Positions 961 to 29,593 of a stretch of DNA of 64,000 bases are shown here, in pieces. The DNA is taken from the NCBI RefSeq assembly GCF_003086295.3, contig NC_092051.1, forward strand, positions 79,368,445 through 79,432,444, in the 5' to 3' direction. How positions within the stretch are numbered: the stretch's first letter is position 1; every line of letters starts with the position of its first letter. Origin of the DNA: Arachis hypogaea (lineage: Eukaryota > Streptophyta > Magnoliopsida > Fabales > Fabaceae). Both the position numbers and the translations under genes were made by a program. The notes below the pieces were generated by a model, which saw nothing but the letters and a program-made list of their open reading frames with translations, did not search any database and was not told the DNA's origin.

Positions 961-997
961 TTGCTCGAGGGCGAGCAACATTCTAAGTTTGGTGTGG
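961..997 (+). other. Internal hairpin plus AAGTTTGGTGT module (A1)
   Basis: TTGCTCG-AGGG-CGAGCAA (961-978) is a perfect 7-bp stem with a 4-base loop. It is followed 5 bases later by CTAAGTTTGGTGTGG (983-997). The same two-part module occurs at the 3' LTR junction (2457-2493). It lies about 40 bp upstream of the small 3' ORF start. Confidence 0.85.
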
Positions 998-1035
998 TAA
1001 AAGCATAGCTTTTTTATTTTTTTCCATAACCGTTG

Positions 1036-1348
1036 ATGGCACCTAAGGCCAGAGAAACCTCTAGAAAGAGGAAAGGGAAGACAAAAGCTTCCATCAAGGG
1101 TCTATAGCTCAGTGGTAGAACATTTGACTGCAAATCAAGAGATCCCTGAGATACCTCAGGGGATACATTTTCTTCCACACAATTATTGGAAGCAACTAAG
1201 GGTGGAACATCAAGAGCACTCCATCATGCTCCATGAAATAAGAGAAGATCAAAAAGCAATGAGGGAGGAGCAACAAAGACAAGGAAGAGACATAGAAGAG
1301 CTCAAGGACATCATTGGTTCCTCAAGAAGGAAACGCCACCATCACTAA
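1036..1348 (+). pseudogene. Small basic coiled-coil 3' ORF of family A, broken
   Basis: The ATG at 1036 opens MAPKARETSRKRKGK, a strongly basic, nuclear-signal-like start. The frame stops soon after because a tRNA-Cys fragment (1098-1146) replaces roughly 190 bp present in A-inner. The downstream part, in another frame, encodes EHQEHSIMLHEIREDQKAMR and then a Glu/Gln/Arg-rich helical stretch, ending in a His-rich tail. It is likely a short coiled coil. Copies lie at 47309-47802 (+) and 6184-6476 (-), all disrupted. I do not recognise the protein. Extra 3' ORFs are known in plant LTR elements, but no function can be read here. Confidence 0.65.
1098..1146 (+). pseudogene. tRNA-Cys(GCA) 5' half embedded in A1
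   Basis: The sequence begins GGGTCTATAGCTCAGTGGTA, as in plant tRNA-Cys. The D-loop AGTGGTA is present. The anticodon arm TTTGA-CTGCAAA-TCAAG pairs (one T-G pair) around a 7-base loop with U33 and anticodon GCA. The D stem has one mismatch (GCTC/GAAC). Sequence identity ends around the variable loop; no T arm or 3' acceptor strand follows, so the gene cannot make a tRNA. The piece lies exactly where A1 lacks sequence present in A-inner. Confidence 0.85.
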
Positions 1349-2456
1349 GGTGGATTCATTCCTTGTTCTTATTTCTTCTGTTTTTCGTTTTCTATGTTAT
1401 GTGCTTATCTATGTTTGTGTCTTCATTACATGATCATTAGTAGTTAGTAACTATGTCTTAAAGTTATGAATGTCTTATGAATCCATCACCTCTCTTAAAT
1501 GAAAAATGTTTTAATTCAAAAGAACAAAAAGTACATGAGTTTCGAATTTATCCTTGAACTTAGCTTAATTATATTGATGTGGTGACAATGCTTCTTGTTT
1601 TCTGAATGTATGCTTGAACAGTGCATATGTCTTTTGAAGTTGTTGTTTAAGAATGTTAAATATGTTGGCTCTTGAAAGAATGATGACTAGGAGACATGTT
1701 ATTTGATAATCTAAAAAATCATAAAAATAATTCTTGAAGCAAGAAAAAGCAGCAAAGAACAAAGCTTGCAGAAAAAAAAAATTAGGCGAAAAAAAAATAG
1801 AAAGAAAAAGAAAAAGCAAGCAGATAAAGCCAAAGCTCTTAAAACCAAAAGGCAAGAGCAAAAAGCCAATAACCCTTAAAACCAAAAGGCAAGGGCAAAT
1901 AAAAAGGATCCCAAGACTTTGAGCATCAGTGGATAGGAGGGCCTAAAGGAATAAAATCCTGGTCTAAGCGGCTAAACCAAGCTGTCCCTAACCATGTGCT
2001 TGTGGCGTGTAGGTGTCAAGTGAAAACTTGAGACTGAGCGGTTAAAGTCAAGGTCCAAAGCAAAAAAAGAGTGTGCTTAAGAACCCTGGACACCTCTAAT
2101 TGGGGACTTTAGCAAAGCTGAGTCACAATCTGAAAAGGTTCACCCAATTATGTGTCTGTGGCATTTATGTATCCGGTGGTAATACTGGAAAACAAAGTGC
2201 TTAGGGCCACGGCCAAGACTCATAAAGAAGCTGTGTTCAAGAATCATCATACTGAACTAGGAGAATCAATAACACTATCTGAACTCTTAGTTCCTATAGA
2301 TGCCAATCATTCTGAACCTCAATGGATAAAGTGAGATGCCAAAACTATTCAAGAGGCAAAAAGCTATAAGTCCCGCTCCTATGATTGAAGCTCTGTTTCA
2401 TTGATAGTTTGGAATTTATAGTATATTCTCTTCTTTTTATCCTATTTGATTTTCAG
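1349..2456 (+). other. A1 3' non-coding region
   Basis: No gene is seen. The region has an A-rich, Lys-codon-like tract (1735-1905) that matches the T-rich tract at 5690-5770 in the opposite strand of A-outer. The rest is conserved 3' untranslated sequence shared with A-inner (47803-48896) and A-last (63304-64000, minus). Confidence 0.75.
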
Positions 2457-2493
2457 TTGCTTGGGGACAAGCAACAATTTAAGTTTGGTGTTG
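2457..2493 (+). promoter_or_regulatory. Polypurine-tract junction with hairpin (A1)
   Basis: TTGCTTG-GGGA-CAAGCAA (2457-2474, 7-bp stem) is followed by TTTAAGTTTGGTGTTG (2478-2493), which directly abuts the LTR start TGATGAGCGG. By position this is the plus-strand priming site, although it is G/T-rich rather than a classical A/G tract. Confidence 0.75.
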
Positions 2494-2867
2494 TGATGAG
2501 CGGATAATTTATACGCTTTTTGACATTGTTTTTAGTATGTTTTTAGTAGGATCTAGTTACTTTTAGGGATGTTTTCATTAGTTTTTATGTTAAATTCACA
2601 TTTCTGGACTTTACTATGAGTTTGTGTGTTTTTCTGTGATTTCAGGTATTTTCTGACTGAAATTGAGGGACTTGAGCAAAAATCAGATTCAGAGGTTGAA
2701 GAAGGACTGCTGATGCTGTTGGATTCTGACCTCCCTGCACTCAAAGTAGATTTTCTGGAGATACAGAACTCAAAATGGCGCGCTTCCAATTGAGTTGGAA
2801 AGTAGACATCTAGGGCTTTCCAGAAATATATAATAGTCCATACTTTGGCCAAGAATAGACGACGTAA

Positions 2868-2975
2868 ACTGGCGTTCAACACCAGCTTTCTACCCAAATC
2901 TGGCGTCCAGCGCCAGAAAAGGAGCCAAAACCAGAGTTGAACGCCCAAACTGGCACAAATACTGGCGTTCAACTC
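2868..2975 (+). repeat. GGCGTT palindromes inside A1 LTR
   Basis: Several CTGGCGTT and AACGCC half and full palindromes occur, for example TGGCGTCCAGCGCCA. They match the array in the internal 3' region. Equivalent clusters lie at 4577-4690, 22222-22340, 49330-49410, 50480-50600, 57350-57420 and 62780-62900. Confidence 0.75.
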
Positions 2976-3093
2976 CAAGAAGGACCTCTACACGTGCAAC
3001 ACTTTAGCTCAGCCCAAACACACACCAAGTGGGCCCCGGAAGTGGATTTATGCATCAATTACTTACTCATGTAAACCCTAGTGACTAGTTTAT

Positions 3094-3103
3094 TATAAAT
3101 AGG
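3094..3103 (+). promoter_or_regulatory. LTR TATA box (A1)
   Basis: TATAAATAGG lies about 600 bp into the LTR. The same box is at 22448, 49534 and 50712 on the plus strand, and on the minus strand at 4442-4451, 57209-57218 and 62656-62665, so it is probably the LTR core promoter. Confidence 0.65.
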
Positions 3104-4213
3104 ACCTTTTACTATTGTATTTGGTATCTTTGATCAGTTGTATGCTATCTTAGATCACAATTGAGGGCTGGCCTCTCGGCCATGCCTGGACTTTCACTTA
3201 TGTATTTTTAACGGTAGAGTTTCTACACTCCATAGATTAAGGTGTGGAGCTCTGCTGTTCCTCAAAGATTAATGCAAAGTACTACTGTTTTCTATTCAAT
3301 TCATCTTATTTCGCTTCTAAGATATCCATTCGCACCCAAGAACGTGATGAAGGTGATGATTATGTGTGACGCTCATCATCCTTCTCCCTTATGAACGCGT
3401 GCCTGACAAACACTTCTGTTCTACATGAATTAAGCTAGAATGAATATCTCTTAGATCTCCTAACCAGAATCTTCGTGGCGTAAGCTAGAATGATGGCGGC
3501 ATTCAAGAGAATCCGTAAAGTCTAAACCTTGTCTGTGGTATTCCGAGTAGGATTCAATGATTGAATGACTGTGACGAGCTTCAAACTCGCGAGTGCTGGG
3601 CGTTATTGACAGACGCAAAAGGAGGGTGAATCCTATTCCAGCATGATCGAGAACCGACAGATGATTAGCCGTACTGTGACAGAGCATGTGAGCATATTTT
3701 TCACTGAGAGGAGGGGATGTAGCCACTGACAACGGTGATGCCCTTGCATAAAGCCAGCCATGGAAAGGAGTAAGACTGATTGGATGAAGATAGCAGGAAA
3801 GCAGAGGTTCAGAGGAACGAAAGCATCTCCATTCGCTTATCTGAAATTATCACCAATGAATTACATAAGTATTTCTATCCCTATTTTATTATATTAAATT
3901 CAAAAACACCATTATCCATTTATATCTGCCTAACTGAGATTTGCAAGGTGACCATAGCTTGCTTCATACCAACAATCTCCGTGGGATTCGACCCTTACTC
4001 ACGTAAGGTATTACTTGGACGACCCAGTGCACTTGCTGGTTAGTTGTATCAAAGTTGTGAACCATGGTATTGGCATCATGTTCTTGGCGCCATTACCAGG
4101 GAAAGAAAGAGCCATGAATTTTACATAATTAAAGTGTAATCACGATTACGCGTACCAAGTTGCTCACGTTGCCAGGGATTGTTCGAGCCTGGACATCACA
4201 ATTTCGTGCACCA

Positions 4214-5059
4214 CCCCTTCATTCTGACTTAACTGAATTAAGTACGAGAGTATATACTGGAGAAGAAGTTGGCGTGAATTGAAAGGAAAACAATAGTACT
4301 TGCATTAATTCATGAAGAACAGTAGAGCTCCACACCTTAATATATGGGATGTAGAAACTCCACCGTAGAAAATACATAAGTGAAAAGAGGTCTAGGCATA
4401 GCCGTGAAGCCAGCCTCCAAACGTGTACAATGGTAAAAAGTGCTATTTATACTAAACTACTAACCTAGGTTTACAGAAAATGAGTAACTAAGTGCAGATA
4501 GTGCAGAAATCTACTTTCGGAGCCCACTTGGTATTTTCTTGGGCTGAGCATTGAGCTTTACACGTGCATATGCTGTTCCTGGAGTTAAATACCAGCTTGG
4601 GTGCCAGTTTTGGCGTTTAACTCCAATTCTGGTGCCAGTTTGGGCGTTTTACGCCAGGAAGTTTTAGGCTGGCTTTGAACGCCAGTCTGGGCCATCAAAT
4701 CTCGAACAAAGTATACACTATTATATATTGCTGGAAAGCCCAAGATGTCTACTTTCCAACGCAATTAAGAGCACTCCAATTGAGCTTCTGTAGCTCCAGA
4801 AAATCTACTTCGAGTGCAGGAGTGTCAGAATCCAAGAGCATCTGCAGTCCTTTTTCAGCCTCTGAATCAGATTTTTGCTCAGGTCCCTCAATTTCAGCCA
4901 GAAAAACCTGAAATTATAGAAAAACACACAAAATCTTAGTAAAGTCCAGAAATGTGATTTTTGAATAAAAACTAATAAAAATATCATAAAAAGTAACTAA
5001 AACATACTAAAAACTATGTAAAAACAATGCCAAAAAGGGTATAAATTATCCGCTCATCA
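4214..5059 (-). repeat. A-outer 3' LTR, left part removed by A1
   Basis: On the minus strand this reads from TGATGAGCGG (ending at 5059) through a TATA box (4442-4451) to the A1 insertion point. About 816 bp of the LTR end, present in the 5' LTR at 56138-56953, is missing here and should lie left of A1 outside the window. Confidence 0.88.
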
Positions 5060-5096
5060 CAACACCAAACATAAATTGTTGCTTGTCCCCAAGCAA
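5060..5096 (-). promoter_or_regulatory. Polypurine-tract junction with hairpin (A-outer)
   Basis: On the minus strand the hairpin TTGCTTG-GGGA-CAAGCAA (5079-5096) is followed by a slightly mutated TTTATGTTTGGTGTTG directly beside the LTR start. Confidence 0.72.
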
Positions 5097-6183
5097 CTAA
5101 AAATAAAATAGGATAAAAAGAAGAGAAAATACAATAAATTCCAAACTTATCAATGAAGGTTAGCTTTAATTAGATGAGCGGAACTTGTAGCCTTTTCGCT
5201 TCTGAACAGTTTTGGCATCTTACTTTATCCTTTGAAGTTCAGAATGATTGGCATCCATAGGAACTTAGAATTCAGATAGTGTTATTGATTCTCTTAGTTC
5301 AATATGTTGATTCTTGAACACAGCTATTTTATGAGTCTTGGCCGTGACCCTAAGCATTTTGTTTTTCAGTATTACCACCGGATACATAAATGCCACAGAC
5401 ACATAACTGGGTGAACTTTTTCAGATTGTGACTCAGCTTTGCTAGAGTCCCCAGTTAGAGGTGCCCAGAGTTCTTAAGCACACTCTTTTTTCTTTGGACC
5501 ACGGCTTTAACCGCTCAGTCTCAAGCTTTTCACTTGACACCTTCACGCCACAAGCACATGGTTAGGGACAGCTTGGTTTAGCCACTTAGGCCAGGATTTT
5601 ATTCCTTTGGGCCCTCCTATCCATTAATGCTCAAAGCCTTGGATCCTTTTTACCCTTGCCTTTTGGTTTAAAGGGCTATTGGCTTTTTCTGCTTGCTTTT
5701 TCTTTTTCTTTCTTTTTTTTCTCTTTTTCTTTATTTTTTTCGCCTTTTTTTTTGCAAGCTTTGTGTTCACTGCTTTTTCTTGCTTCAAGAATCAATTTTA
5801 TGATTTTTCAGATTATCAATAACATTTCTCCTTTTTCATTATTCTTTCAAGAGCCAACAATTTTAACATTCATAAACAACAATATCAAAAATATGCACTG
5901 TTCAAGCATTCATTCAGAAAACAAAGAGTATTGCCACCACATCAAAATAATTAAACTAATTTCAAGATAAAATTCAAAATTCATTTACTTCTTGTTCTTT
6001 TGCAAATAAAAGCAAATTTTTTATTTAAGAAATGTAATGGATTCATAGGACATTCATAGCTTTAAGACATAGATATTAGACACTAATGATCATGTAATAA
6101 AAACACAAACATAGATAGAACATAAAGCATAGAATTCGAAAAACAGAAAAATAAGAACAAGGAAATTAAAGAACAGGTCCACC
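5097..6183 (-). other. A-outer 3' non-coding region
   Basis: Non-coding sequence homologous to 1349-2456 and 47803-48896 in opposite orientation. It includes a T-rich tract at 5690-5770. No gene is seen. Confidence 0.75.
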
Positions 6184-6476
6184 TTAGTGATGGCGGCTAG
6201 TTCTTCTTCTTGAAGATCCCATGGAGTGCTTTAGCTCTTTAATATCTCTTCCTTGCCTTTGTTGCTCCTCTTTCATGGCCTTTTGGTCCTCTCTGATTTT
6301 ATGGAGGATAATAGAGTGCTGTTGTTGAGGTCCATGAGTGGGCTCTCTTGTTTGCTCCATCCTCTTTCTAGTGATGGGATTTTGAGATGAATTTCTCCAT
6401 CTCTCATAACTCAGAGTTGGAAGCAACTACCTTCCCTTTCCTCTTCCTAGAGGTTTCTCCGGCCTTAGGTGCCATT
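6184..6476 (-). pseudogene. Small basic coiled-coil 3' ORF of A-outer, broken
   Basis: Minus-strand ATG at 6476 opens MAPKAGETSRKRKGK. An in-frame TGA follows after about 24 codons, and a later frame gives KRMEQTREPTHGPQQQHS and the REDQKAMKEEQQRQGRDIKE coiled-coil segment with a basic/His tail. The middle is shorter than in A-inner. This is the same unrecognised ORF as at 1036-1348 and 47309-47802. The conserved start, basic patch and coiled coil in three copies suggest it was once a real protein of this family. Confidence 0.65.
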
Positions 6477-6510
6477 AATGGTTATGGAAAAACAAAAAAC
6501 TGAGCTTTTC

Positions 6511-6547
6511 CACACCAAACTTAAAAGCTTTGCTCGTCCTCGAGCAA
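6511..6547 (-). other. Internal hairpin plus AAGTTTGGTGT module (A-outer)
   Basis: On the minus strand TTGCTCG-AGGA-CGAGCAA (6530-6547, 7-bp stem) is followed by TTAAGTTTGGTGTG (6511-6524), just upstream of the 3' ORF, as in A1 and A-inner. Confidence 0.85.
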
Positions 6548-6831
6548 AATAAGATAGAAGGGAGTAGAAGAAGAGTGATGCAATTAATTTTGAAAACATA
6601 TTAATGTATAAAAGAAAGAGAGTTGAAAAGAATTTGAAAAGATATGTAAGTCTTGAAAACGTTTTAAAAGAATTAAAAAGAGAATTAAAAAGAATTGGAA
6701 AGATTATTAATTTTTTAAAATAGAAATTGAAAGATGAAAGTTTAAAATATGTTTGATGCAAAAAATTATGAATTAAAACATGAAAAATTGAAAAAACCGA
6801 ATTGGAAACAAAATTACCTCCCTTGTGTCAT

Positions 6832-7062
6832 CCTGGCGTTAAACTCCCAGAATGCTATCTATTCTGGCGTTTAACGCCCACTTGACTGCCATTTTGGGCG
6901 TTTAACGCCCAGCCAGATACCTTGGCTGGCGTTAAAAGCCAGGATTCCTTCTTTAATGGGCGTTTTTCTGAATGCCCAGAATGCTGCCCATTTTGGCGTT
7001 TAACATCCAGAATGCTATCCTTACTGGCGTTTAAATGCCAGTAAGCCTGTCCTCCAGGGTGT
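6832..7062 (-). repeat. Array of CTGGCGTT-AACGCCAG palindromes (A-outer)
   Basis: About eight units such as TGGCGTTTAACGCC are spaced 20-30 bp apart. It is the positional equivalent of 432-640 and 46563-46805. Confidence 0.88.
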
Positions 7063-7261
7063 GCTATTTTTGATGCTGTTTTTGATTTTTCTTTATTTTT
7101 GCAACTATTTTTATCACTTCACATGATCATCAACCTAAAGAAAACATAAAATAACAATGAAAAACAAATGTATAAAATAAATATAATTAAATAACATTGG
7201 GTTGCCTCCCGATAAGCGCTTCTTTAATGTTAATAGCTTGACAGTGAGCTCTTAGTGGGCT

Positions 7262-7369
7262 TCACAGAGACTCAGAGCTTAATGGTGGCCTCCTAACACC
7301 AAACTTAGAAGTTGAGTGTGGGGGCTCTGTTTGACTCTGTATTGAGAGAAGCCTTTCATGCTTCCTCTC
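7262..7369 (-). pseudogene. Tail of A-outer gag-pro, cut by element B
   Basis: On the minus strand this continues the frame that is interrupted at 53250. It gives a KFGVRRPP-type motif tail and stops with TGA at 7264-7262. Joining 53250 and 7369 across B, with one copy of CTCTC, gives the sequence order seen uninterrupted at 46200-46260. This shows B landed in this coding tail. Confidence 0.8.
7365..7369. repeat. Target site duplication CTCTC of element B (left)
   Basis: CTCTC lies directly before the B LTR end at 7370 and again directly after the other B end (53245-53249). The sequence occurs once in the uninterrupted homologue. Confidence 0.92.
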
Positions 7370-8875
7370 TGATGATCGGAAGATTGATGGTTTAGAACTC
7401 ACAATAAATTCTCGTTGCAAGTATAGTTTCTAAACCAAGCAATAATCCTTTCATACAAAAAAACTTGTTTGTCACTTAAGCAAACCCAATTAAATTGATA
7501 ACCGATGTATTGAAACCTCGGGTCGTCTCTCAAGGAATTGCAGGGAGGTATGATTTATTATTGGTTATGGAAAAAGGTGTATTTTTGGGTTTTTGAAATA
7601 GGGAACAAGTAATTTAAATGGCAAGGAAAATAAATTAATAATTAAGAGAATCTCTTGGCAAGGTATAAGAGCTGGAAATTCTATCCTATTTATCCTTATC
7701 AGGTGTGATGAGAATTGTTTGTTGCTCCCACTTAGTTAACCCTTACTAAATAAAGGAAAGTCAAGTGGACTAATTAATTTGATCCTCAAGTCCTAGTCAA
7801 CTCCTGTGGAAAGACTAGCTTTAGAGCGATCCAAATCAATCAGCAATTCCCAAATCTCAATCAACTGCTGAGTTTGACAACTCAAGTGTTACCAATTACT
7901 TAACCAAAACTAAAAAAAGAAAAATATAAATTAAATTAAAAGCATTAATAGCATAAATTTGAAGAAAGTAATCTTAAATCTGAAATACCTCAATATGCAT
8001 TAAATAGAATATTCAAATCTAACATGAGAAGGTTCATAAGCCACTTTGGCAACATAAGTCAAATACAAGTAAAATCATTAGAATAAATAAAAGTAGAAGA
8101 GAAACATTAATTAAAGGAATATTGAACCTGTGATTAAAGAGAAGTAGCCTAATCATAATAGAAATCCCAAATCCTAATCCTAAATCCTAATCCTAAGAGA
8201 GAGGAGAGAGCCTCTTTCTCTAAAACTACATCTAAACCTAAAATTGTGAATTCTCCATGTTCTCTCTATCATCCTCTTCGATTCCCCCATTCTCTGGCAT
8301 CTATTCCGTGCTTCTGGGCTTGGATCTAGGCCGAAAGGGGCCCAGATATCATTGAGGGCATTTTCTGCATATTCTTGTACGTGGCGTCCGTCACGCGTAC
8401 GCGTGGGTCACGCGTTCGCATCGTTTGGAGTTTTTCCTGGTCACGTGTACGCGTCAGTCATGCGTACGCGTCATTTGCGTTATGCTCAAAGCACATGTCC
8501 GCGTCATCCATGCGTACGCTTCGCTGCCATTTTGCGCTAGGCACGCGTCCACGTCGTCCATATGTTCGCGTCGCTGCCTTTTCTTCAGAACTCCATTTTT
8601 GTGCTTTCCTTCCATTTTTGTATGTTTCCTTTCTGTCCTCTAAGTTATTCCTGCCCTATGAAGCCTGAAAATACTTAACACACAGATCACGCATCGAATG
8701 GTAATAAAGGATAATTAAAATTAATATTTTTAAAGAATTGGAAATATGTTTTCACATATATTATAAAATAAGGAAGGGAAAGTAAAACCATGCAATTCAT
8801 ATGAATAAGTGGGTGAAGAATTGATAAAAACACTCAATTTGAGCACAAGATGAATCATAAAATAGGGGTTTATCA
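7370..8875 (-). repeat. B 3' LTR
   Basis: 1506 bp. It matches the B 5' LTR at both ends. It contains about 130 bp (around 8032-8165) that the 5' LTR lacks, and an ACGCGT-rich array at 8380-8565. Confidence 0.92.
8380..8565. repeat. ACGCGT/CGCGTACGCG array in B LTR
   Basis: Repeated GTCACGCGTACGCGT-like units occur in an otherwise AT-rich LTR and give a dense cluster of CpG and MluI-like palindromes. The partner array in the other LTR is 52743-52945. Confidence 0.88.
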
Positions 8876-8912
8876 ACCTCCCCACACATAAACAATAGTA
8901 TGTCCTCATGCT
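8876..8912 (-). promoter_or_regulatory. Polypurine tract of B with hairpin
   Basis: The minus strand reads AGCATG-AGGA-CATACT (8897-8912, one mismatch), a short spacer, then TTATGTGTGGGGAGGT ending at the LTR start TGATAAACCCC. GTGGGGAGG is a good polypurine tract. Confidence 0.8.
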
Positions 8913-10442
8913 AAATCCAAGAGAAAAAAGTGAAGGTAGAATGGTGGAATCTTATGCAATGCAATCTATTCTAAATGCAAGCTACCTAAAATGAATCATG
9001 CAATTCTAATTATCATCCACCTATATATACAGAGCTTACATGTGGTTAATTTGATTGATATTTTCAAGGAATCACATATGCATAGCCAAGCCTAAATCAT
9101 GTTAAAGCACTTTCACCATTGAGTTGAGTCAAAGGAATTCACAAACTTGCAAGACAATTAACAATTAAACAGGGATATATAGAGATGAGCTATTAAACCC
9201 TCACTGAATTTTGTGTTTACTCTCTAGTCACTCAGTGTTTGGGGTTAATCACTCTATTCTTTTCTATTCATGCTTTCTAAAACTTTGTTCTTCATCTAAC
9301 CAATCAACAAATATCTAATGCATACATACAAACATCATGAGGTCTTTTTGAAGGTTGTAATGAGGCCAAGGTAAAGGTGAGGATATATATAAGGCTAAGT
9401 GAGCTATAAGTTGAATCCCTGATTAGTCTAAGATCTCACCTAACATATACATTCTCTATAAAAATTTAAACTTATCCTGGTCTTCCCAATTTTTTCACTT
9501 TCTTATTACATACTCATATACCAACTTTATTTTGATTTTACCTCATGTGCATTGATTTCTTTACTAAACTTATTATTGGGGTAATTTTGTCGCCTTATTT
9601 ATTTATGTAATTAAAAGGGATTTTTTTTAAAACATAAACACAACATATATCAATACACATGTTATTTTAATTTAAATTTGTTTCACATGAGCATGCTCCC
9701 AAATTTCTGATTATTTTACTAATTTAATCCTTTCCTATCAACCCATGTTCCCATGTTTCCCTACACTTAGTGGATACACAATCTCTATCTTAAGCTAACC
9801 AAGGATTCAACTTGGGATTTTTAATTTTTTTTCTGCTTAAAGCTAGTGATGTGGTTATAGAACAAAAGGGGATTAAAAAAGCTCAAGGGGACTAACAAGG
9901 GTGATGTTGGAGGTATTCTTATTTGGGATAAGTGAGCAAAACAAGCAATGGCCTCAATCACATGCATGTATATATCTACAAACTATATTGGACATATAGA
10001 TTGAAACAAAGTTAAGATTACAACCATAGAAAAGAAGTGCAAAACACACAGAAATGAAATTTATGGTTGAATATAGCCATACAATTAAGCTTAAAAACTC
10101 ACGGGTTGTGTGTTCTCTGGCTCAAAAACCATTTATCAGTTATGTATGTCATGCAAGTAGAAATCAAGAGTTTCCATTCAACTAAATGTGAATCTTAGAA
10201 TGGCTTTTATAAACTTTAGTATTTTCCATGAAAAATGTTGTCAATTAACCAACATTTATTGCTATATATATATATAAGGTGTGTGGATTGTTGTGATTCT
10301 GTTATACTAAAGTTTCTAGTTTACTCTTTTTATTTTAAATTAAACCAAATTATCATATGCTAAAAGGGTAAACTAAACTAATTAATCTATATTTTCTATA
10401 TCACAACTTAATAAGCTAAAAGTGCAAACTAACTAAATATCT
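8913..10442 (-). other. B 3' non-coding region
   Basis: AT-rich with no credible ORF. Parts resemble, in opposite orientation, the E 3' region around 16070-16900, for example the shared phrases around TGATTGAGGCCAT and TTTGCTCACTTATCC. B and E are therefore related families. Confidence 0.7.
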
Positions 10443-10443
10443 A

Positions 10444-10477
<34 letters not shown>
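10443..10477. repeat. AT dinucleotide microsatellite
   Basis: A run of about 14 TA repeats in the B interior. Confidence 0.95.
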
Positions 10478-10480
<3 letters not shown>

Positions 10481-10646
10481 AAAGTGCAAGATGCAAAAAT
10501 AAAGTAAAAATACAGCAAAAAAAATGTGCAAGTACTGAAAGATAAATAAAATAAGATAAAATAAAATAAAATATAGAAAATAAACAAAATAGGATAAAAG
10601 AGAGTCTGAAAGTGGTTCACCAAAATAAAGTTCGCCAGAGATGGTG

Positions 10647-10685
10647 ACCTCCCCACACTTAAATAATAGCATCGCCCTCGATGCT
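10647..10685 (-). other. Internal hairpin plus TTAAGTGTGGGGAGGT module of B
   Basis: The minus strand reads AGCATCG-AGGG-CGATGCT (10668-10685, perfect 7-bp stem), then TTTAAGTGTGGGGAGGT (10647-10663). This is a better match to a polypurine tract than the one at the LTR junction, yet it lies about 1.8 kb inside the element. Confidence 0.85.
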
Positions 10686-10739
10686 TAATCAAGCTGGGTG
10701 TGAAGAAGGGTCATCTCTGGACGGATGTGCAGTAGGTGT

Positions 10740-10890
10740 CTCTATGGTGGTGACGGTACTGGGGCGGCTCCGGTATGGGGCTGGGGTCGTGGAGGGAGGA
10801 GGGGAGAGGGGAAGGAAGAGGGAAGAAGAAGGGGAGGGAGGAGGGGGGTGCTGTGAGGGCAGCGTGGTGGTAGGGGGCACGGCACGGCGG
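10740..10890 (+). repeat. G-rich purine tract in B interior
   Basis: A long run of G and A with many GGG/GGGG blocks (GGAGGAGGGGAGAGGGGAAG type) ends where E is inserted. The G-rich character resumes after E (18936-19020), so E landed inside it. Confidence 0.8.
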
Positions 10891-10891
10891 G

Positions 10892-10896
10892 GCTGG
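10892..10896. repeat. Target site duplication GCTGG of element E (left)
   Basis: GCTGG before 10897 is matched by GCTGG at 18931-18935 after the E 3' LTR. Confidence 0.92.
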
Positions 10897-12487
10897 TGAT
10901 AAACCCCGATTTTGTCACCTTTTCTCACATTTATTCAATGAAATAGCATGGTTTTGCAATTCTCCCTTGATTTGTGCTTAAATGTGAAAACATGCTTTTT
11001 AGGCCCTAAAATTGGTGATTTTAATTCATTTTAATTCTATTCGATGCCTTGATATATTTTTTAAGTAATTTCAGGTTCATAAGGCAAGTATTGGATAGAA
11101 GAAGTGAAGAGAAAAGCATGCAAAGTGGGAGAACTCATGAAGAAATGAAGGAACCGAAAAGCTGTCAAGCCTGACCTCTTCGCACACAAATGACCATAAC
11201 TTGAGCTACAGAGGTCCAAATTAGGCGGTTCTAGTTGCGTTGGAAAGCTAACATCTGGGGCTTCAAAGTGATATAACATTTGCTATATGTTTTCTGACGC
11301 ATATGGGCGCGCACGCGCACTTTGCACGCGCGCGCCGATGCTTTCCGTAGCCCACTTTAATGAAATCGCCCCCAGTGATTTTGCAGCTCATTTTGGGCCC
11401 AATCCAACCCATTTCTGATGCTATTGAACCCAAGGATTGGAGGGAGAATGAATCAAGTAGTCATAGTTTTAGTTTTCATCATGTTTTAGGATAGAATTCT
11501 AGAGAGAGAAGCTCTCTCCTCTCTCTAGATTTAGGATAGAAATTAGGATAGAGTTATGATAATCACTCTCAAATTTCTCTTTTAATTCTTGTTTTGATTT
11601 CAATTCTCTTTATGTTTTAGTGTTCTATTGTCTTTGATCTTGTAGTTTCTCTTGTTAATTTCTTATTTTACTCTCTTTTATGTTGATGGACATTGTTGGA
11701 TCTTGATTTTCTTTAATGCAATTTTTATGTTTCCATGTTCTTTTATGTTGATCTTAGTTGCTATTATTGATTTCTTGCTTATGTTGGTCATGGGTTCCTT
11801 TAATTCTTACATTTTATAATGTTTACTTTTCTTGCACACTAAGTGTTTGATATAATGTTTCCTTTAGTTCTAGAGTAGTTCTCTTTACTCTTGGCCTAGG
11901 CTAAAGGAATTGAGTGACCTTGAGTCATTGGGTCTCAATGATTTGGTAATTTGAGAACCCTTGGTGATCAATTTGATACTCATTGATGCCAACCCACTAC
12001 TAATCTAATTAGTAGGTAGGTTGGGACTTATGGGTTGATGTGATCAAGCCTATTTGACGTACTTCAAGCCTAAGAGTAGATATTACGTACTTAAGGCTTT
12101 TGGAAGTAGACTTAATGGGTTGGCCTCTCATAATTATCAATATTTGGTTTGTAGACAAGGATGGTGATCTCAATTACCTATGTCTTAGCCAAGAGTTCTT
12201 TTCCTTTATTTTATTTAGCTCTTGTCATTTTACCTTCTTGTCATTTAATTTTTCTTGCCATTTACTTTCTTGTAAAAAAATATAAAACCAACCCCCTTAC
12301 CCCCTTTATAGCCAATAATTGAGCACTTCATTGCAATTCCTTGTTAGACGACCCGGAGTTCAAATACTTTGGTTAATTCTTATTAGGGTTACGTGGGAAT
12401 TGTTTGTTGGTTTAGAACTATGCTTACAACGAAGTAATTCTTTCTATAAGAAGAAATTCTAAACCGACACGACAAAACTCGTTATCA
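10897..12487 (+). repeat. E 5' LTR
   Basis: 1591 bp, TGATAAACCCCGATTTT to CTCGTTATCA. It is highly similar to the 3' LTR, with small indels near both ends. A GC-rich block of CGCGCACGCGC type lies at 11305-11335. The stretch 12100-12285 reads as an ORF in both LTRs but is just LTR sequence. Confidence 0.93.
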
Positions 12488-12490
12488 AAA

Positions 12491-12508
12491 TGGCGCCGTT
12501 GCTGGGGA
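12491..12508 (+). promoter_or_regulatory. Primer binding site of E (tRNA-Asp type)
   Basis: TGGCGCCGTTGCTGGGGA, three bases after the LTR, is complementary to the 3' end expected for plant tRNA-Asp except for one base. Confidence 0.88.
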
Positions 12509-12639
12509 GTTGCAATGGTGTTATGTTATTGGCTATTGTGAATATTGTGAATATGTTTGCCTTTTGCTTATTTGTTAGTTTTTGTTAGGCTTAGGACCTT
12601 GTTGCTTATTTTTGTTAGTTTTTGTTTTTGTTTGTTACT

Positions 12640-14288
12640 ATGAATTCTCATCACTTTGGCTATGAGTTTGGTTCAATTTATGTTGTAGGAAATGGGAACT
12701 ACAATGAGGATGTGCATCATGGATGGAACAATCAAAGGTGGGAGGAGCCTCAAGGGATTGATCAACCTTCTTGGCAACAACAACCTCCGGATTCTTATGG
12801 TATAATTCCAATCTTAATGCATATCAATCTAATGGATGTGGTGACCCTTATTATGATTGTTAACAACCACCACCACATGCCTATGAACCACCCTCTCAAC
12901 ATAATTTTGAACCATTATACTCACAAGCCTCATATCACCAAACACCTCCATACGATCCCAACCCATATCCACCATACCAACCACCTTGTGAACCATATGA
13001 ACCATATGAAGAACCACCCCAATTCCACCACTAATACCCTCAAGAACCACCACCTCTATACTATTACCAAGATGAATCACCTCCCATGTATGATAACTTT
13101 CAACCACATAATGAATTTCCCTTACCACCACAACCCTCCATGGAAGAACACCCATATCCATCCATCCAAGAGCAAACGGATCGTCTCAAGGAAGAAATGG
13201 ATCGGCTTCAAGCAATAATCCATCAAAAGGAGCAAGAAGAAGCCCAAAGAAAGAATTATGAAGCTATTGAGGCTAACCTTTCCAAAATTAAAGCCAACTT
13301 GGACTCATGGGACTCATGCAACAAGCAAAGCATCTCCACGGATGAATATGAGAAATCAACCGAAGAAAGTAGCATGAAGGAGATTTTAGAATCTCAATAT
13401 GAGGACAAGGAGATGGGGTATATTTTGCAACAAGTGGAGGAGGGAGAGATTGTTAAAGAAGAAGAAGTGGTTGAAGAGTTAGAGGAAGCTGAACAAGAGG
13501 TGAATTTCAAACTTGAGAGCACTTCCACACCAAGTGACATTTTTGATGATTTTGTGGAAGTTGTTGAACCTTCTTCCAATGAGCTTGAATTTGATGTTGA
13601 TGAGGATAATGCGCAACCTCCAAGGCATAGTGTGAATGATGAAAGATTGGAAGAGGGTGATCAAGAGGCAAGCTCCACCAATGAAGAATGTGTGGAAGAA
13701 GTTGGTGGGCAAAGAATTGAAGTTGAAAAAGCTTGCCAAGAGGTGGAGGTAGTCAAAGAAGAGCACAAGGGAATGGAACTTACAAGACCATTGGAGATGT
13801 CCCTTCCTAAGTCCCCATCTAACATAACATTCAAGTGGGTAAACTCCTTATCTCTAATCTTTACTTTCCCACTTGAATATGGTTTGATTGAGACGGATGG
13901 GCAACTTAGAGCTCTTTGTGGGGTTAAGAACAAAATGAAATTGAGTAGTGGGTGGAAATGCCAATCAAGGTTCCTTATGGTTGGAAGCTTAAAGTCTAAG
14001 TGCAATGGTTGGTATAGTTCTCAACTAAAGGGGTCTAGGAAGATGCTTTGGTGTTTACTTGAGAATTCGGATCACTTCTCACCCAATTGGAATTATGATG
14101 ATCAACTTGAAGATGGGTGTAGAAACAAGATTTGGGATCCGGGTATATATGAGTATCAATTTTGGGAACCCTTAGCTTGTGAAGGACTTCATCAAGACTT
14201 GTTGCAACTCATTAGAAATTTTGGAGCACAATGGAAAACCAAGCATTGGTGGAGGTTCCAAGATGAATTCAAGCACAAGTCACCATAA
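12640..14288 (+). pseudogene. Unrecognised acidic, Trp-rich ORF of element E
   Basis: ATG 12640 opens MNSHHFGYEFGS, then a Pro/Tyr/His-rich region. A frameshift near 12800 and a stop at 13032-13034 precede a 400-codon open frame (13086-14288). This has a predicted coiled coil (KEEMDRLQAIIHQKEQEEAQ), a Glu-rich acidic middle, and a C-terminus with FKWVNSLSLIFTFPLEY, ETDGQLRALC, KIWDPGIYEYQFWEP and WWRFQDEFKH. Element B encodes the same order (19731-21386). The KWV...FPLEY...WDPGIY and WWRF..EFKHK.P motifs are the most conserved. No zinc knuckle, protease or RT motif is visible. It may be a very diverged gag-like protein, or a protein private to these pol-less elements. Confidence 0.7.
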
Positions 14289-14654
14289 CAAGGAGCTTCC
14301 CAAATGTCCAACTTAAGGACTTAAACTAAAAGTGCTAGGTGGGAGACACCCCACCATGGTAAACTCTTTCCACTCTCTTTTAGATTTGGTTAATAAGAGA
14401 TTGGAGTTGCCATTGTAGGTAGTTCTTCTTATTGTCTATACTCTTATGCATTTTGCTTTTATTGATAGGTTATTTGTTGCATTCATGCCTTGATTAGTCT
14501 AGTTATTGTTGAATTGTATTTTGCTTGTAGTATAAGTTTTGTTTTTAGTGTATTTGAAAATTTTTCAAAAACCAAAAAGATTTGTTGTTGAATTTAATTT
14601 TGATTGTTTTAGAATGCTTGTAGATTAGGAAAGTGCCTTGTTTTTGAAAAAAAA

Positions 14655-14890
14655 AAAATGGGCATCCGCGCGCGCGCCTGTGGTGCATATCACACTCCTG
14701 GTACAAAAACCAAAGAGTTGTGCCAAAGTTATGCCTATTCTGTGCCGCGACCCACGTGCAAGCGTACATGACGCGTCCGCACCGGTCGCCATCTTCACAT
14801 CCACGCGTATGCGTGCTATGCGCGTACGCGTTGCTTGTCCCGCCTGCCCGCCCACGCGTACGTGTGCCGTGCGCGTACGTGTCGGTTCCG
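14655..14890 (+). repeat. CGCGTACGCGT-rich array in E
   Basis: Repeated CACGCGTACGTGTGCC and GCGCGTACGCGT-like units occur in AT-rich surroundings. It is comparable to arrays in B (8380-8565, 19040-19520, 52743-52945). Confidence 0.85.
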
Positions 14891-15692
14891 CGTGCTGCTT
14901 CCCCTGTTTTCTACTTTGTTTTCTTCCTCTTTCTTTTTAACTTCTTCTTTCTTCTTCTTTCTTCCTTTCTTACTTTCTTTCACTTCTTCTTTTCTTTTCA
15001 AAATTCCAGTTTTTATTTTTCTTATTTTCATTTTCTTCTATATGTTGCATTTGCATATTATCAACCATTGCATTTTAATTTTGTTTTCATAAATTGTTCT
15101 TATTTTCTTTTCTAAGTTATTATTTTAATAATGGTGTTGGATTCTTATATTCAATTGTTGAGGATTTCTTGGTTAATCTTGGTGCTTTGTGACTTGTTCG
15201 ACATTAATTGTAATATTTACTCTACACACAAGATTAGTGCTTTAGTCCTTCCTGACTCATGATCCCTTATTTTTATACTTCATCATCATTGAGTTAGGAT
15301 GGGACCAAAAGCTCTCACGCTTACCACTAATCTTGTTTGTGTCAATTATTGATTAAGCTTGATGCTCAATATGCTCTTCATGCTTTAACTTGTTTTTGCA
15401 TCAAGTATTAATTGATATGCCCTTTGCCTATATTGTTCTCTCACTTACATGCGTAGCTAACATGTAGTGAGAACCTCAGTCTTATTTGGCATTAGCCCCC
15501 GCCTATGTTCTACTTGCTCTGATATCTTTGATATAGGCTTAATTATCCTTCTTTCTCTTTCCTTTTAGGTTGGCCACCAAGAAGGAAAGGAATGGAAAGG
15601 CTTCTAAATGGGGCAACAAACAAGTTCATTCGCACAACCTTTTGAAGGAGCTCATCAATTGTAGCAACCCATCCACCTTGCTCTCCTTTGCA

Positions 15693-15726
15693 TGCACCGA
15701 GGACGGTGCAAATTTCTAAGTGTGGG
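15693..15726 (+). other. Internal hairpin plus CTAAGTGTGGG module of E
   Basis: TGCACCG-AGGA-CGGTGCA (15693-15710, perfect 7-bp stem, 4-base loop) is followed after 5 bases by CTAAGTGTGGG (15716-15726). It lies about 1.5 kb upstream of the true polypurine tract. Confidence 0.85.
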
Positions 15727-17242
15727 AAGGTCGTCCGACCGATCTCCATGGGTAACAATTTCTTTCTTTCAACACCAATTTTTTAATTTTTGTCGTTGTT
15801 AGATTAGTTGTTGCATTGCATGATAGGTTGCATGTTTGTTAGAATTTGTACATATTTTTACAACTTCCTTTTTATGTTAGGACTACTTGGTTAGGGTGAT
15901 GATTTCTTTTCCAAGAAAAATTGTTTTTAGGGCACCCTACCAATTTGAAAAAAAAAATTTCTTTTGTGACAAACTTGCTTGAAGAATTTATTTTGGAACA
16001 TGGTTTTTGAGCTAAGAACACAAGCATGTGAGTTTTGAGCCCAATTGTATGGTTACATCTTATAACCACTTATTTTTCATTCTTGTGTGTATTACTCTCT
16101 TTCTATGATTGTGATCTTTGATTTGTTTGATTCTATATGTCCATTATTCCATGTATACATGCATTTATATGATTGAGGCCATCATTTCATTTAGCTCACT
16201 TATCCAAATAGCTTACCTTTCATCAACCATTGTTAGCCAAATTTGAGCCTATTTAATCCCTTTTATTCTTAATATTAGCACATCACTACCCTTAAGTGAA
16301 AAAACAATAAATGTCCTTAATTTGGATCTTTGATTAGCTTAGGCTAGTGAGGGTGTATATCATTTGGGTATGGGAACCTTGGGACATTAGTTGAGGTAAA
16401 AGTGTAATTTTTTTTTTTTGTTGAAAATATTGTGAATTGGGTACATATTCATGCACTATATGTAAAACTATATGCATTAATACATTTGTATATACTTTAG
16501 AAAAAAAATGATGATAAAGACAAAAGAAAAAAAAGAACATATATATATATATATAAAATATAGAAAAAAAAGAGAAAAAGAAATAAAAAGGGGACAAAAA
16601 GGCCCCAAAGTAAAGTTCAATAAAAATCAATGCATACGGAATGTGAATTAAAGATAATACATGAGTATGTGAAAAAGTGGGAATCATGGGTAGCTAGGTA
16701 CTATATTAGAATTTTATAGGTTGTTATATGTGTTAGGTGAGAGCTTAGGTTAATCAAAGATGCAAATTTCAAGCTCAAGTGACCATATGCATCCATACCT
16801 TGACCCTAGCCCCACTACAACCTATGAATAAGTTCTCATGATGAATGTATGCATGCATTGAATAATTGTTGATTGTTAGATGAAAAACAAATCATAGAAA
16901 GCATGATTAGAAGAGAATTGAGTGATCGACCCTATACACTTGAGCAACTAGAGCGGATACACCTCCGGTGAGGGTTCGATGCTCAATTCCTTGTTTCCGG
17001 CTTTCATGAGCGTTCTTCTTGCAAGTCTATTTGAACTTCATTTTGATATTTGAATTGGTAGAGTTTGTGAGTCGTCATATGACCTTTGCCCTACTTGCTT
17101 ATATATGTTCTTGGAGATTGATTTACTTTTAACCAAGTAGGTAGAATCATTTTGCATTTAGTTGCATGCATGTAGATAGGAACATCTAGTTTATTTGCAT
17201 TGAATAAATGTTCATACCCTTTTCTTGTCCTTCTTTATTCTT

Positions 17243-17279
17243 AGCATGAGGACATGCTTGGTTTAAGTGTGGGGAGATT
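17243..17279 (+). promoter_or_regulatory. Polypurine tract of E with hairpin
   Basis: AGCATG-AGGA-CATGCT (17243-17258) is followed by TTTAAGTGTGGGGAGATT (17262-17279) touching the LTR start TGATAAACCCC. Confidence 0.87.
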
Positions 17280-18930
17280 TGATAAACCCCAATTTTGTGG
17301 TTTATCTTGTGCTTATTTTGGGAGATTTTATCAGCTTTTCTCAAATTTATTCAATGAAATAGCATGGTTTTGCAATTCTCCCTTGATTTGTGCTTAAATG
17401 TGAAAACATGCTTTTTAGGCCCTAAAATTGGTGATTTTAATTCACTTTAATTTCATTCGATGCCTTGATATACTTGTTAAGTAATTTCAGGTTCATAAGG
17501 CAAGTATTGGATAGATGAAGTGAAGAGAAAAGCATGCAAAGTGGGAGAACTCATGAAGAAATGAAGGAACTGTAAAGCTGTCAAGCCTGACCTCTTCGCA
17601 CTCAAATGACCATAACTTGACCTACAAAGGTCCAAATGAGGCGGTTCCAGTTGCGTTGGAAAGATAACATCTGGGGATTCGAAATGATATAAAATTAGCT
17701 ATATGTTGACTGACGCATAGGGGCGCGCACGCGCACTTTGCGCGTGCACGCCGATGCTGTCCGTGGCCCACTTTAATGAAATCGCCCCCCAGCAATTATG
17801 CAGCTCATTTTGAGCCCAATCCAATCCATTTCTGATGCTATTGAACCCAAGGATTGGAGGGGGAATGAATCAAGTAGTCATAGTTTTAGTTTTCATCATG
17901 TTTTAGGATAGAATTCTAGAGAGAGAAGCTCTCTCCTCTCTCTAGATTTAGGATAGAAATTAGGATAGAGTTATGATAATCACTCTCAAATTTCTCTTTT
18001 AATTCTTGTTTTGATTTCAATTCTGTTTATGTTTTAGTGTTCTATTATCTTTGATCTTGTAGTTTCTCTTGTTAATTTCTTATTTTACTCTCTTTTATAT
18101 TGATGGACATTGTTGGATCTTGATTTTCTTTAATGCAATTTTTATGTTTCCATGTTCTTTTATGTTGATCTTAGTTGCTATTATTGATTTCTTGCTTATG
18201 TTGGTCATGGGTTCCTTTAATTCTTACATTTTATGATATTTACTTTTCTTGCACACTAAGTGTTTGATATAATGTTTCCTTTAGTTCTAGAGTAGTTCTC
18301 TTTACTCTTGGCCTAGGCTAAAGGAATTAAGTGACCTTGAGTCATTGGATCTCAAAGATTTGGTAATTTGAGAACCCTTGGTGATCAATTTGATACTCAT
18401 TGACACCAACCCACTACTAATCTAATTAGTAGGTAGGTTGGGACTTATGGGTTGATGTGATCAAGCCTATTTGACGTACTTCAAGCCTAGGAGTAGATAT
18501 TACGTACTTAAGGCTTTTGGAAGTAGACTTAATGGGTTGGCCTCTCATAATTATCAATATTTGGTTTGTAGACAAGGATGGTGATCTCAATTACCTATGT
18601 CTTAGCCAAGAGTTCTTTTCCTTTATTTTATTTAGCTCTTGTCATTTTACCTTCTTGTCATTTAATTTTTCTTGCCATTTACTTTCTTGCAAAAAAATGT
18701 AAAACTAACCCCCTTACCCCCTTTATAGCCAATAATTGAGTACTTCATTGCAATTCCTTGTAAGACGACCCGGAGTTCAAATACTTCGGTTAATTCTTAT
18801 TGGGGTTTGTACTTGTGACAACTTAAAATTTTGATGTGGGAATTGTTTGTTGGTTTAGAACTATGCTTACAACGAAGTAATTCTTTCTATAAGAAGAAAA
18901 TCTAAACCGACACGACAAAACTCATTATCA
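17280..18930 (+). repeat. E 3' LTR
   Basis: 1651 bp, TGATAAACCCCAATTTT to CTCATTATCA. It carries two short segments missing from the 5' LTR (around 17300 and 18805), and is followed by GCTGG. Confidence 0.93.
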
Positions 18931-21480: not shown

Positions 21481-21498
21481 TCCCCGGCAACGGCGCCA
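21481..21498 (-). promoter_or_regulatory. Primer binding site of B (tRNA-Asp)
   Basis: The minus strand reads TGGCGCCGTTGCCGGGGA, an exact complement of the expected plant tRNA-Asp 3' end, four bases inside the 5' LTR. Confidence 0.93.
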
Positions 21499-28582: not shown

Positions 28583-28970
28583 TAATGACAAGTCATCTTA
28601 GCCTATTTTAACTAGCCTTTTTCTTTTGTTTTCATTAGAATTATGCACTTTCTTGAACCATAAGCAAGCTAATTGAGTAGATTTTCATGTTTCCTTTGAT
28701 TGAATCAACCATGTATGAATTCATGCTATTTCATGAGGTTTTATACTATAATTGTCACATATTATGAAAGAATGAATATCTCATGATTTTGAGCATAGCT
28801 TTGATGTGTTTGGTTGATTAATGATAGGTGAAGAAAGCTTGGAGAAAGGTTGAAGCAAGAAGGAATACCTAGGAGTAAAGAGAAGACAATGGAATAAGTG
28901 AAATTGAACCAGGAAGCAAAAAGCTGGACCTAAAGTTAGCCTCAAACTTTTGCACAAACTTTTGTGTGAA

Positions 28971-29370
28971 AAGTTAGCCCCAACGTTAGCCCCTAACTTT
29001 TGGGCTAACGTTGGAACTTGAAAATCACTCCCTGGGTACCAAAAGTTTGCGCCAACGTTAGCCCCTAACTTTGAGGCTAACGTTGGCACAAGAAAATCAC
29101 CCCTGGGCACCAAAAGTTTGCGCCAACGTTAGCCCCTAACTTTGAGGCTAACGTTGGCATGAGAAAAACACTCCCTGGGCACCAAAAGTTTGCGCCAACG
29201 TTAGCCCCTAACTTTGAGGCTAATGTTGGCACATGAAAACTACAAGGGGAGGAGAAAAAGTTTGCGCCAACGTTAGCCCCTAACTTTGAGGCTAACGTTG
29301 GCGCCACAAGTGCACCAAGGAAGGCTAACGTTGGTGCAAAAGTTAGACCCTTAACTTTTGCACCAACATG
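28971..29370 (+). repeat. Hairpin array in D LTR 1
   Basis: Five ~72-bp tandem units each hold GCCAACGTTAGCC, an 11-base spacer CCTAACTTTGA, then GGCTAACGTTGGC, a 13-bp perfect stem in the best units. A diverged pair of AAAGTTAGACC / AACTTTTGCACC arms follows. Minus-strand ORFs through it, reading LASKLGANVGANF repeats, are by-products. Confidence 0.93.
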
Positions 29371-29583: not shown

Positions 29584-29593
29584 TATAAATAGG
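29584..29593 (+). promoter_or_regulatory. LTR TATA box (D LTR 1)
   Basis: TATAAATAGG lies about 1.0 kb into the LTR. Identical boxes are at 35924-35933 and 42263-42272. Confidence 0.65.

What the first reader, a model, noticed from the sequence alone, without database searches (positions are those of the whole stretch)
961..17279. A covarying hairpin plus TAAGT(TT/G)TGG module shared by four LTR-element families and duplicated inside three of them
At each 3' LTR junction I read a short hairpin with a purine RGGR loop and then the plus-strand priming motif: A1 2457-2493, A-outer 5060-5096, A-inner 48897-48933, A-last 63267-63303, D 34874-34910 and 41213-41249, E 17243-17279, B 8876-8912. The same module recurs 1.5-1.8 kb inside the element in A (961-997, 6511-6547, 47236-47273), E (15693-15726) and B (10647-10685). 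Most copies have 18 bases as 7+4+7. The stem changes as paired sets: TTGCTTG/CAAGCAA, TTGCTCG/CGAGCAA, TGCACCG/CGGTGCA, AGCATCG/CGATGCT. The loop stays GGGA, AGGG or AGGA. Covariation plus duplication points to selected RNA structure. The role is inference: a central-polypurine-tract analogue, an RNase H guide or an RNA packaging signal.
Basis: partly seen in the sequence, partly recalled or inferred. Interest (0 to 1): 0.9.

Follow-up and report, generated by a model that had tools for sequence, protein, structure and literature searches.

The report
Paired hairpin beside retrotransposon plus-strand primer
Peanut jumping elements of one plant lineage carry a small hairpin, conserved in its pairing rather than its letters, next to the spot where their second DNA strand should start, and often a second copy further inside; it is probably a replication signal, a new twist on a known kind of feature, and has not been tested in the laboratory.

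Summary
All 13 sites are where stated; 9 of 13 stems pair 7/7 and 4 of 13 pair 6/7. The genome is 2.56 Gb, read as peanut from gag hits. Primer binding sites are of the tRNA-Asp type, as reported for Calypso and Diaspora. Genome-wide there are 39,154 exact A-type hairpins and 6,147, 7,740 and 13,638 matches to three patterns that fix loop, closing G-C and motif but not the other six pairs (reversed controls 4, 1, 3). Of 200 such matches analysed, 186 pair at 6 or more of 7 positions. Six of seven pairs change on both sides. An internal copy with core lies 1.4-2.1 kb upstream in 13 of 20 fetched A 3' ends (correcting my count). Best explanation: a plus-strand-priming cis-element at the 3' LTR and again internally. 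An extra PPT in Athila4 and Calypso is already in print; my searches found no report of the hairpin. Mechanism is inference. The 12-base core also recurs without hairpin, even in 5' leaders, which complicates a pure primer reading.

The parts
961..997 (+). A1 internal module: stem TTGCTCG/CGAGCAA, loop AGGG, then TAAGTTTGGTGTGG
2457..2493 (+). A1 3' module, abutting the LTR that begins TGATGAG: stem TTGCTTG/CAAGCAA, loop GGGA
5060..5096 (-). A-outer 3' module (motif reads TATGTTTGG)
6511..6547 (-). A-outer internal module, stem extends to 9 pairs counting G.T, loop AGGA
8876..8912 (-). B 3' module, one broken pair, motif TATGTGTGG; LTR TGATAAACC begins at 8875 on the minus strand
10647..10685 (-). 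B internal module: stem AGCATCG/CGATGCT, loop AGGG, TAAGTGTGGGGAGGT
15693..15726 (+). E internal module: stem TGCACCG/CGGTGCA, loop AGGA, TAAGTGTGGG
17243..17279 (+). E 3' module: stem AGCATG/CATGCT, loop AGGA; LTR begins 17280
34874..34910 (+). D first-unit 3' module; LTR begins 34911
41213..41249 (+). D second-unit 3' module; LTR begins 41250
47236..47273 (+). A-inner internal module, loop-closing pair broken
48897..48933 (+). A-inner 3' module, one broken pair
63267..63303 (-). A-last 3' module
12491..12508 (+). E primer binding site, tRNA-Asp type
   Evidence: the tRNA's letters are recalled; PMC1142308 passage gives tRNA-Asp for Calypso and Diaspora
21481..21498 (-). B primer binding site, same type
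30393..30410 (+). D first-unit primer binding site, same type
36732..36749 (+). D second-unit primer binding site, same type
10897..18930 (+). E element, LTR to LTR, between B pieces, GCTGG on both sides (target duplication)
28583..43064 (+). D tandem: three LTRs, two internal regions, ATCGC on both sides (target duplication)
33576..33637 (+). D linker: two copies of TAAGTTTGGTGT without the RGGR hairpin

Best explanation
The module is a cis-acting RNA element of Athila-lineage retrotransposons for starting plus-strand DNA: a pyrimidine-rich tract, a 6-9 bp hairpin with a G-RGGR-C loop, 4-6 bases, then the primer core (TAAGTKTGG and the bases after it) that ends at the 3' LTR. A copy inside the element would give a second plus-strand start, like a central PPT. 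SHOWN: the conserved, covarying stem; its place next to the LTR; the frequent internal duplicate; its presence in elements in whose examined pieces gag or protease but no reverse transcriptase domain was found. INFERRED: that the core is the plus-strand primer (from its place at the LTR edge); that the hairpin helps by pausing reverse transcriptase while it copies the minus strand, so that its RNase H, 18-20 bases behind, cuts at the primer/LTR border; that the loop is held by a protein such as nucleocapsid or reverse transcriptase.
For: Covariation: 15 distinct stems, 95.2% of cells paired against 67.5% shuffled (0/500), 6 of 7 pairs changed on both sides, slid controls 20-50%; eight family-level stems, 54 of 56 pairs formed, 6 of 40,320 permutations as good, 94 of 98 5'-arm differences compensated; 65 distinct stems, 87.7% paired against 57.0% (maximum of 2,000 shuffles 63.3%), the three top column pairs by APC-corrected mutual information being stem pairs. 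With only loop, closing G-C and motif fixed, 95 of 100 and 91 of 100 listed matches pair at 6 or more of 7. Place: 20 of 20 fetched A hairpins are followed by core and LTR; from the 7-bp stem to the LTR it is 19 (A), 18 (D), 20 (E), 20 (B) bases in the window and 20 in a fifth family whose LTR start is inferred. Duplication: 13 of 20 A ends; 12 same-strand E/B-type pairs among two lists of 100, 11 at 1.4-1.7 kb and one at 3.0 kb. The 40 bases before the 13 hairpins average 77% pyrimidine against 50% background. No RT domain in the ORFs and pieces examined. RT stalls at hairpin bases and pausing allows more RNase H cuts (PMC3187697, passages); HIV-1 RT's polymerase-dependent cut lies 18 bp behind its polymerase site (PMC3185654, passages).
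Against: Yeast Ty3 RT, from the same superfamily, has its two sites about 13 bp apart (PMC5371799, passages), which does not fit 18-20 unless RT stops several bases before the hairpin; PMC3187697 also notes structures that act without a detected pause. Pausing needs a stem, not a conserved loop; my search patterns fixed the loop and its closing pair, so their constancy is not measured there. The core TAAGTTTGGTGTTG is 7 of 14 purines, unlike known PPTs (PMC3185511, passages). 43 of 64 exact copies of TAAGTTTGGTGT in the window plus 20 random loci lack the hairpin, several in the 5' leader, so the core may do something else as well. D has no internal hairpin copy; of 20 A ends 5 showed no upstream hairpin within about 2.2 kb, one had a decayed core and one (L131) only another LTR-edge module. 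No experiment.
Confidence: 0.5

Rival explanations
1. RNA packaging or dimerisation signal: Gag/nucleocapsid binds the exposed purine loop, as it binds purine-loop hairpins in retroviral packaging signals (recalled).
For: In the window copies the loop stays purine (GGGA, AGGG, AGGA) while the stem varies; the core word without hairpin occurs 120-637 bases after the primer binding site at 6 of 7 random-locus sites with TGGCGCCGTTGCCGGGGA, the region where packaging signals usually lie (recalled); present in elements with gag and no RT found.
Against: The hairpin sits next to the LTR-edge core; 11 of 11 exact-core LTR edges in the window and random loci carry it, and no leader copy of the core did. 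At the window's B, E and D primer sites no core lies within 1.5 kb.
Confidence: 0.2
2. The internal copy is a splicing or expression signal for the extra ORF that follows, and the hairpin marks that border.
For: In L141 an ORF piece with Transposase_32 (PF20167, E 7.6e-36) lies between the internal and 3' modules; the 40 bases before the three A internal hairpins of the window are 80-93% pyrimidine; an ATG follows within about 60 bases in the A copies.
Against: A similar tract and hairpin stand at the 3' LTR edge with no ORF behind, and the window A copies keep the module although their linker is shorter than in L141.
Confidence: 0.12
3. The internal module is a fossil of a former 3' end (old PPT left behind when a new 3' part was gained), passively inherited.
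For: It carries the same three parts; in A, E and B of the window the pair next to the closing pair is C-G internally and T-A at the 3' end, which suggests an old split. Some A internal copies elsewhere have T-A there.
Against: Internal stems differ between families by compensated changes; in A/D-type copies hairpin and core are better conserved than flanks (0.88 and 0.96 against 0.52-0.76 in 27 internal copies, where the core and five pairs were required for inclusion).
Confidence: 0.13
4. Chance inverted repeat or sequence-composition effect.
For: None found.
Against: Reversed-pattern controls 0-4 against thousands of matches; outside plants none of 42 viral and none of 16 prokaryote matches to the loop-plus-motif pattern has 6 or more pairs.
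Confidence: 0.02

Closest known systems
Extra PPT in the linker of Athila4 (Arabidopsis) and Calypso (soybean)
   Different: The passage seen mentions no hairpin or covariation for them; here it is also in elements where no RT was found.
Sirevirus (Ty1/copia) multiple PPTs with an inverted repeat around the terminal PPT
   Same: Repeated PPT copies upstream of the 3' LTR, and an inverted repeat tied to the PPT, proposed as a signal for RNase H (PMC2829016, passages; also named in PMC3601003, passage).
   Different: There PPT and LTR start sit inside the loop and the upstream PPTs lack the repeat; here the hairpin lies wholly before the core and is at the internal copy too.
Central PPT of lentiviruses and Ty1
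   Same: A second plus-strand start inside the genome is proposed here.
   Different: Known as purine tracts; here the A/D core is half pyrimidine and a hairpin comes with it. No central PPT is known for Ty3 (PMC5371799, passage).
Retroviral packaging-signal hairpins with purine loops (recalled)
   Same: Short stem, exposed purines.
   Different: Those are in the 5' leader; here at the 3' LTR edge and in the linker.

Membership tests
Athila lineage (Ty3/gypsy, OTA clade) | tRNA-Asp primer binding site about 5 bp after the 5' LTR | tested here: met
   TGGCGCCGTTGCYGGGGA at D, E and B, starting 6, 3 and 4 bases after the LTR, and at 7 random-locus sites with C. The site behind A1 (4085) is decayed. 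tRNA letters recalled; trait of Calypso/Diaspora from PMC1142308 passage.
Athila lineage (Ty3/gypsy, OTA clade) | RT/integrase phylogeny | not testable with these tools
   No RT domain found in the pieces examined; the assignment rests on the primer site and layout.
Central polypurine tract | second copy of the 3' plus-strand primer sequence inside the element | tested here: met
   B internal and E 3' share TAAGTGTGGGGAG; A internal and 3' share TAAGTTTGGTGT; 13 of 20 A ends. D: hairpin-less copies only.
Central polypurine tract | polypurine composition | tested here: not met
   TAAGTTTGGTGTTG is 7 of 14 purines; the E/B core is richer in purine but mixed.
Central polypurine tract | mapped plus-strand start at the site | not testable with these tools
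   needs DNA from particles
Structured RNA element | compensatory changes across independent families | tested here: met
   not R-scape, and relatedness only reduced, not modelled
Rfam family | match at gathering score | tested here: not met
   0 matches in the window

The most novel reading that the evidence does not exclude
In these elements plus-strand starts are set by structure and a distributed word rather than by purine content: a 12-base core is repeated several times along the RNA (5' leader, coding array, linker, LTR edge), and a dedicated covarying hairpin marks which copies act as start sites, at the LTR and at an internal site.
Probability: 0.25. Interest if true: 0.8.

Novelty: new variant of a known kind. 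Interest (0 to 1): 0.55.

Why it matters
How reverse transcriptases choose the plus-strand primer is an old question, studied mostly on purine tracts. A hairpin with tens of thousands of copies in one crop genome, conserved in pairing rather than in letters and often present twice per element, makes a structural contribution directly testable. It also gives a sequence-plus-structure handle for finding 3' ends, internal borders and gag-only relatives of Athila-type elements.

Tried and rejected
Relatives outside plants: two IMG/VR pattern scans (42 and 51 stretches) and two GTDB scans gave no module. With the loop pattern none of the 42 had 4 or more pairs and the best of the 16 had 5 (L101); with the core-plus-LTR pattern one of 51 had a 6-bp stem with an unrelated loop (L075). 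A gag-profile search of IMG/VR found no relative. Rfam: none. A text search for motif letters gave 249 papers, of which 40 were listed, none by title about plant retrotransposon ends.

Literature for a prior description: listings; passages only, no whole paper, in PMC1142308, PMC3601003, PMC2829016, PMC7264820, PMC3185511, PMC3187697, PMC2410132, PMC6317226, PMC3185654 and PMC5371799. None of those passages describes a hairpin upstream of the PPT in Athila-type elements. PMC3605345 (listed for 'duplicated PPT' in chromoviruses) was not opened. Wright and Voytas 2002 is not held, so an earlier description there cannot be excluded.

Rejected: direct chance (see rivals); a former LTR between the modules (self-BLAST with E 1e-20 and 150 bases or more shows no match between the A1 linker and its LTR). 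MAFFT mis-registered the E and B internal stems in a 51-column alignment, so I used 18-base pieces without gaps. E 15600-17300 against B did not bring the internal modules into register, so no flank comparison was made for E/B.

Rows dropped: from the list I left out three distinct array-type words (GTGTTGGGAGGCC... and two variants, five sites, 4-5 pairs), because they belong to the coding array and not to the module; with them the percentages would be lower. Searches had thresholds on loop or pairing.

The odds did not need to change.

Not answered: the spacer-5 TAAGTGTGG pattern, the loop-free upstream pattern and the genome-wide count of TAAGTTTGGTGT. So the share of LTR edges that carry the hairpin, with no condition on the loop, is known only from 11 of 11 exact-core edges.
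Full report
CHECK. All 13 sites exist as described. Nine of 13 stems are perfect over seven pairs and four have one broken pair. In the window 10 of 14 hairpins with an RGGR loop and 6 or more pairs are followed by the motif. TAAGTKTGG is present 25 times against a mean of 1.4 in 60 shuffles.

WHAT IT LIES IN. The window is a plant nest of LTR elements. Self-comparison shows A copies, B with E inserted, and a D tandem with three LTRs; E and D have clear target duplications. Of 10 ORFs scanned, 6 matched gag or aspartic-protease domains; further pieces of E, B, D and A gave no reverse transcriptase. Not scanned for domains: the E linker 15727-17242, the B linker 8913-10646, and other gaps. D gag hits with names are mostly Arachis species among the 120 listed of 400, and the own genome is 2,557,474,382 bases in 440 contigs, so I read it as cultivated peanut. 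Primer sites are of the tRNA-Asp type, the type reported for Calypso and Diaspora (PMC1142308 passages).

STRUCTURE. On the 13 window sites (9 distinct) 93.7% of cells pair against 65.5% shuffled, and six of seven pairs have changes on both sides. With sampled loci, 15 distinct stems: 95.2% against 67.5%, covariation score 0.709 against 0.167, 0 of 500 shuffles as high, slid versions 20-50% paired; two of the five measures were reached by 9 and 10 of 500 shuffles. Shuffles ignore relatedness, so I also reduced the data to eight stems (A, E, B and a fifth family G; internal and 3'): 54 of 56 pairs form, 6 of 40,320 permutations reach that, and 94 of 98 differences in the 5' arm are compensated; three of those eight share one 5' arm. 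In 65 distinct stems 87.7% of cells pair against 57.0%. The top three column pairs by APC-corrected mutual information are stem pairs; ranks 4 and 5 are neighbouring, unpaired columns (15-16, 3-4), and two stem pairs (2-17, and 7-12, which the patterns fixed) are not in the top 15. RNA folding with 60 bases on each side gives the helix high probability at 12 of 13 window sites, apart from single broken pairs; B 3' does not fold so.

GENOME-WIDE. Exact A-type hairpin 39,154 (reversed control 0). Patterns that fix the loop, its closing G-C and the motif but not the other six pairs: spacer 4 with TAAGTGTGG 6,147 (control 4), spacer 6 with TAAGTGTGG 7,740 (control 1), spacer 6 with GAGGRC and TAAGTTTGG 13,638 (control 3). 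In the first 100 listed of the first two, 95 and 91 pair at 6 or more of 7, one of the seven being given by the pattern; the list was not tallied. The pair next to the closing pair is T-A in 95 of 100 spacer-4 matches, and C-G in 71 and G-C in 16 of 100 spacer-6 matches. I take the former for mostly LTR-edge and the latter for mostly internal modules; this was checked only for the 12 paired cases and for the loci read in full. In the A family some internal copies have T-A there.

DUPLICATION. I fetched 2.3 kb upstream of 20 A hairpins, taken in list order. All 20 are followed by core and LTR. Thirteen have an internal hairpin with core 1.4-2.1 kb upstream; L118 has a hairpin with a decayed core; L131 has an upstream module of LTR-edge type, so another element; five have none. 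The two lists pair 12 times on one strand, 11 at 1.4-1.7 kb and one at 3.0 kb; the lists are truncated, so this is not a rate. A fifth family, met in a random region, has internal TGCACGG/CCGTGCA and, about 1.5 kb on, 3' TAGCATG/CATGCTA. In L141 an ORF piece with Transposase_32 lies between the modules and gag lies upstream, again without RT in the pieces scanned.

THE CORE WORD. TAAGTTTGGTGT occurs 19 times in the window and 0 times in each of 60 shuffles. In the window plus 20 random 10-kb loci there are 64 exact copies: 11 at LTR edges, all with hairpin; 10 internal with hairpin; 43 without. Of these some lie 120-637 bases behind the primer binding site, at 6 of 7 random-locus sites with TGGCGCCGTTGCCGGGGA (and at one decayed site of the window), others in a 33-base coding array and in the D linker. 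The B, E and D primer sites of the window have none within 1.5 kb, so the leader copies belong to A-like elements only. The class names come from a rough script rule; the hairpin column is firmer. This word is therefore more than an LTR-edge primer, or primer-like sites are spread along the RNA as in Sireviruses.

MECHANISM. The stem ends 18-20 bases before the LTR in five families. If RT pauses at the stem during minus-strand synthesis, an RNase H site 18 bp behind, as in HIV-1 (PMC3185654), would sit at the border where the primer must be cut. For Ty3 the distance is about 13 bp (PMC5371799), which speaks against a simple version. The pyrimidine-rich stretch before the hairpin (77% against 50%) recalls the U-rich stretch before retroviral PPTs (recalled). 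In the unselected window copies the loop stays purine, which pausing alone does not need, so a bound protein is possible. Conservation in A/D-type copies peaks at hairpin and core (0.88 and 0.96 in 27 internal copies; 0.98 and 1.00 in 12 LTR edges) over flanks (0.52-0.76 and 0.74-0.88), with the caveat that the core and five paired bases were required for inclusion.

KNOWN AND NEW. An extra PPT in Athila4 and Calypso, and Sirevirus PPT repeats with an inverted repeat, are in print (PMC2829016 passages); PMC3601003 calls for a systematic search for PPT hairpins (passage). In the searches named under Tried and rejected I found no description of this hairpin; the key 2002 paper is not held. I rate it a new variant of a known kind.

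Noticed in passing
140-220, 7299-7307, 46279-46323, 23923, 24094, 55907 (minus), 33576, 33626: TAAGTTTGGTGT repeated without the RGGR hairpin in coding arrays, 5' leaders and the D linker; in L141 and L143 the copies run leader-array-internal-3' on one strand.
   Followed up: partly
33576-33650: In D the core is followed by its own near-complement (ACACCAAA, CCACCAAAAC), so here the core itself can sit in a stem; in A arrays it is preceded by CCAAACT.
   Followed up: no
L159 minus strand 437; window 9761 (minus): A third TAAGTGTGGGG-like motif without hairpin in the linker of the fifth family, and a changed one (TAAGTGTAG) in B.
   Followed up: no
28583-43064: D tandem of three LTRs and two internal regions with target duplication ATCGC, beside a kinase-like ORF (28197-28598, by eye only).
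   Followed up: partly
43072-47235: Fragment matching DUF707 (E 4.9e-8) downstream of the D tandem.
   Followed up: no
L141:6422-8600: Transposase_32 (PF20167) ORF piece in sense between internal and 3' modules of an A-type element.
   Followed up: no
28969-29358; L113:706-1119: Tandem repeats of about 72 bases in the D LTR; L113 has repeats of similar spacing with AAGTTAGGGGGCTAACTT palindromes.
   Followed up: no
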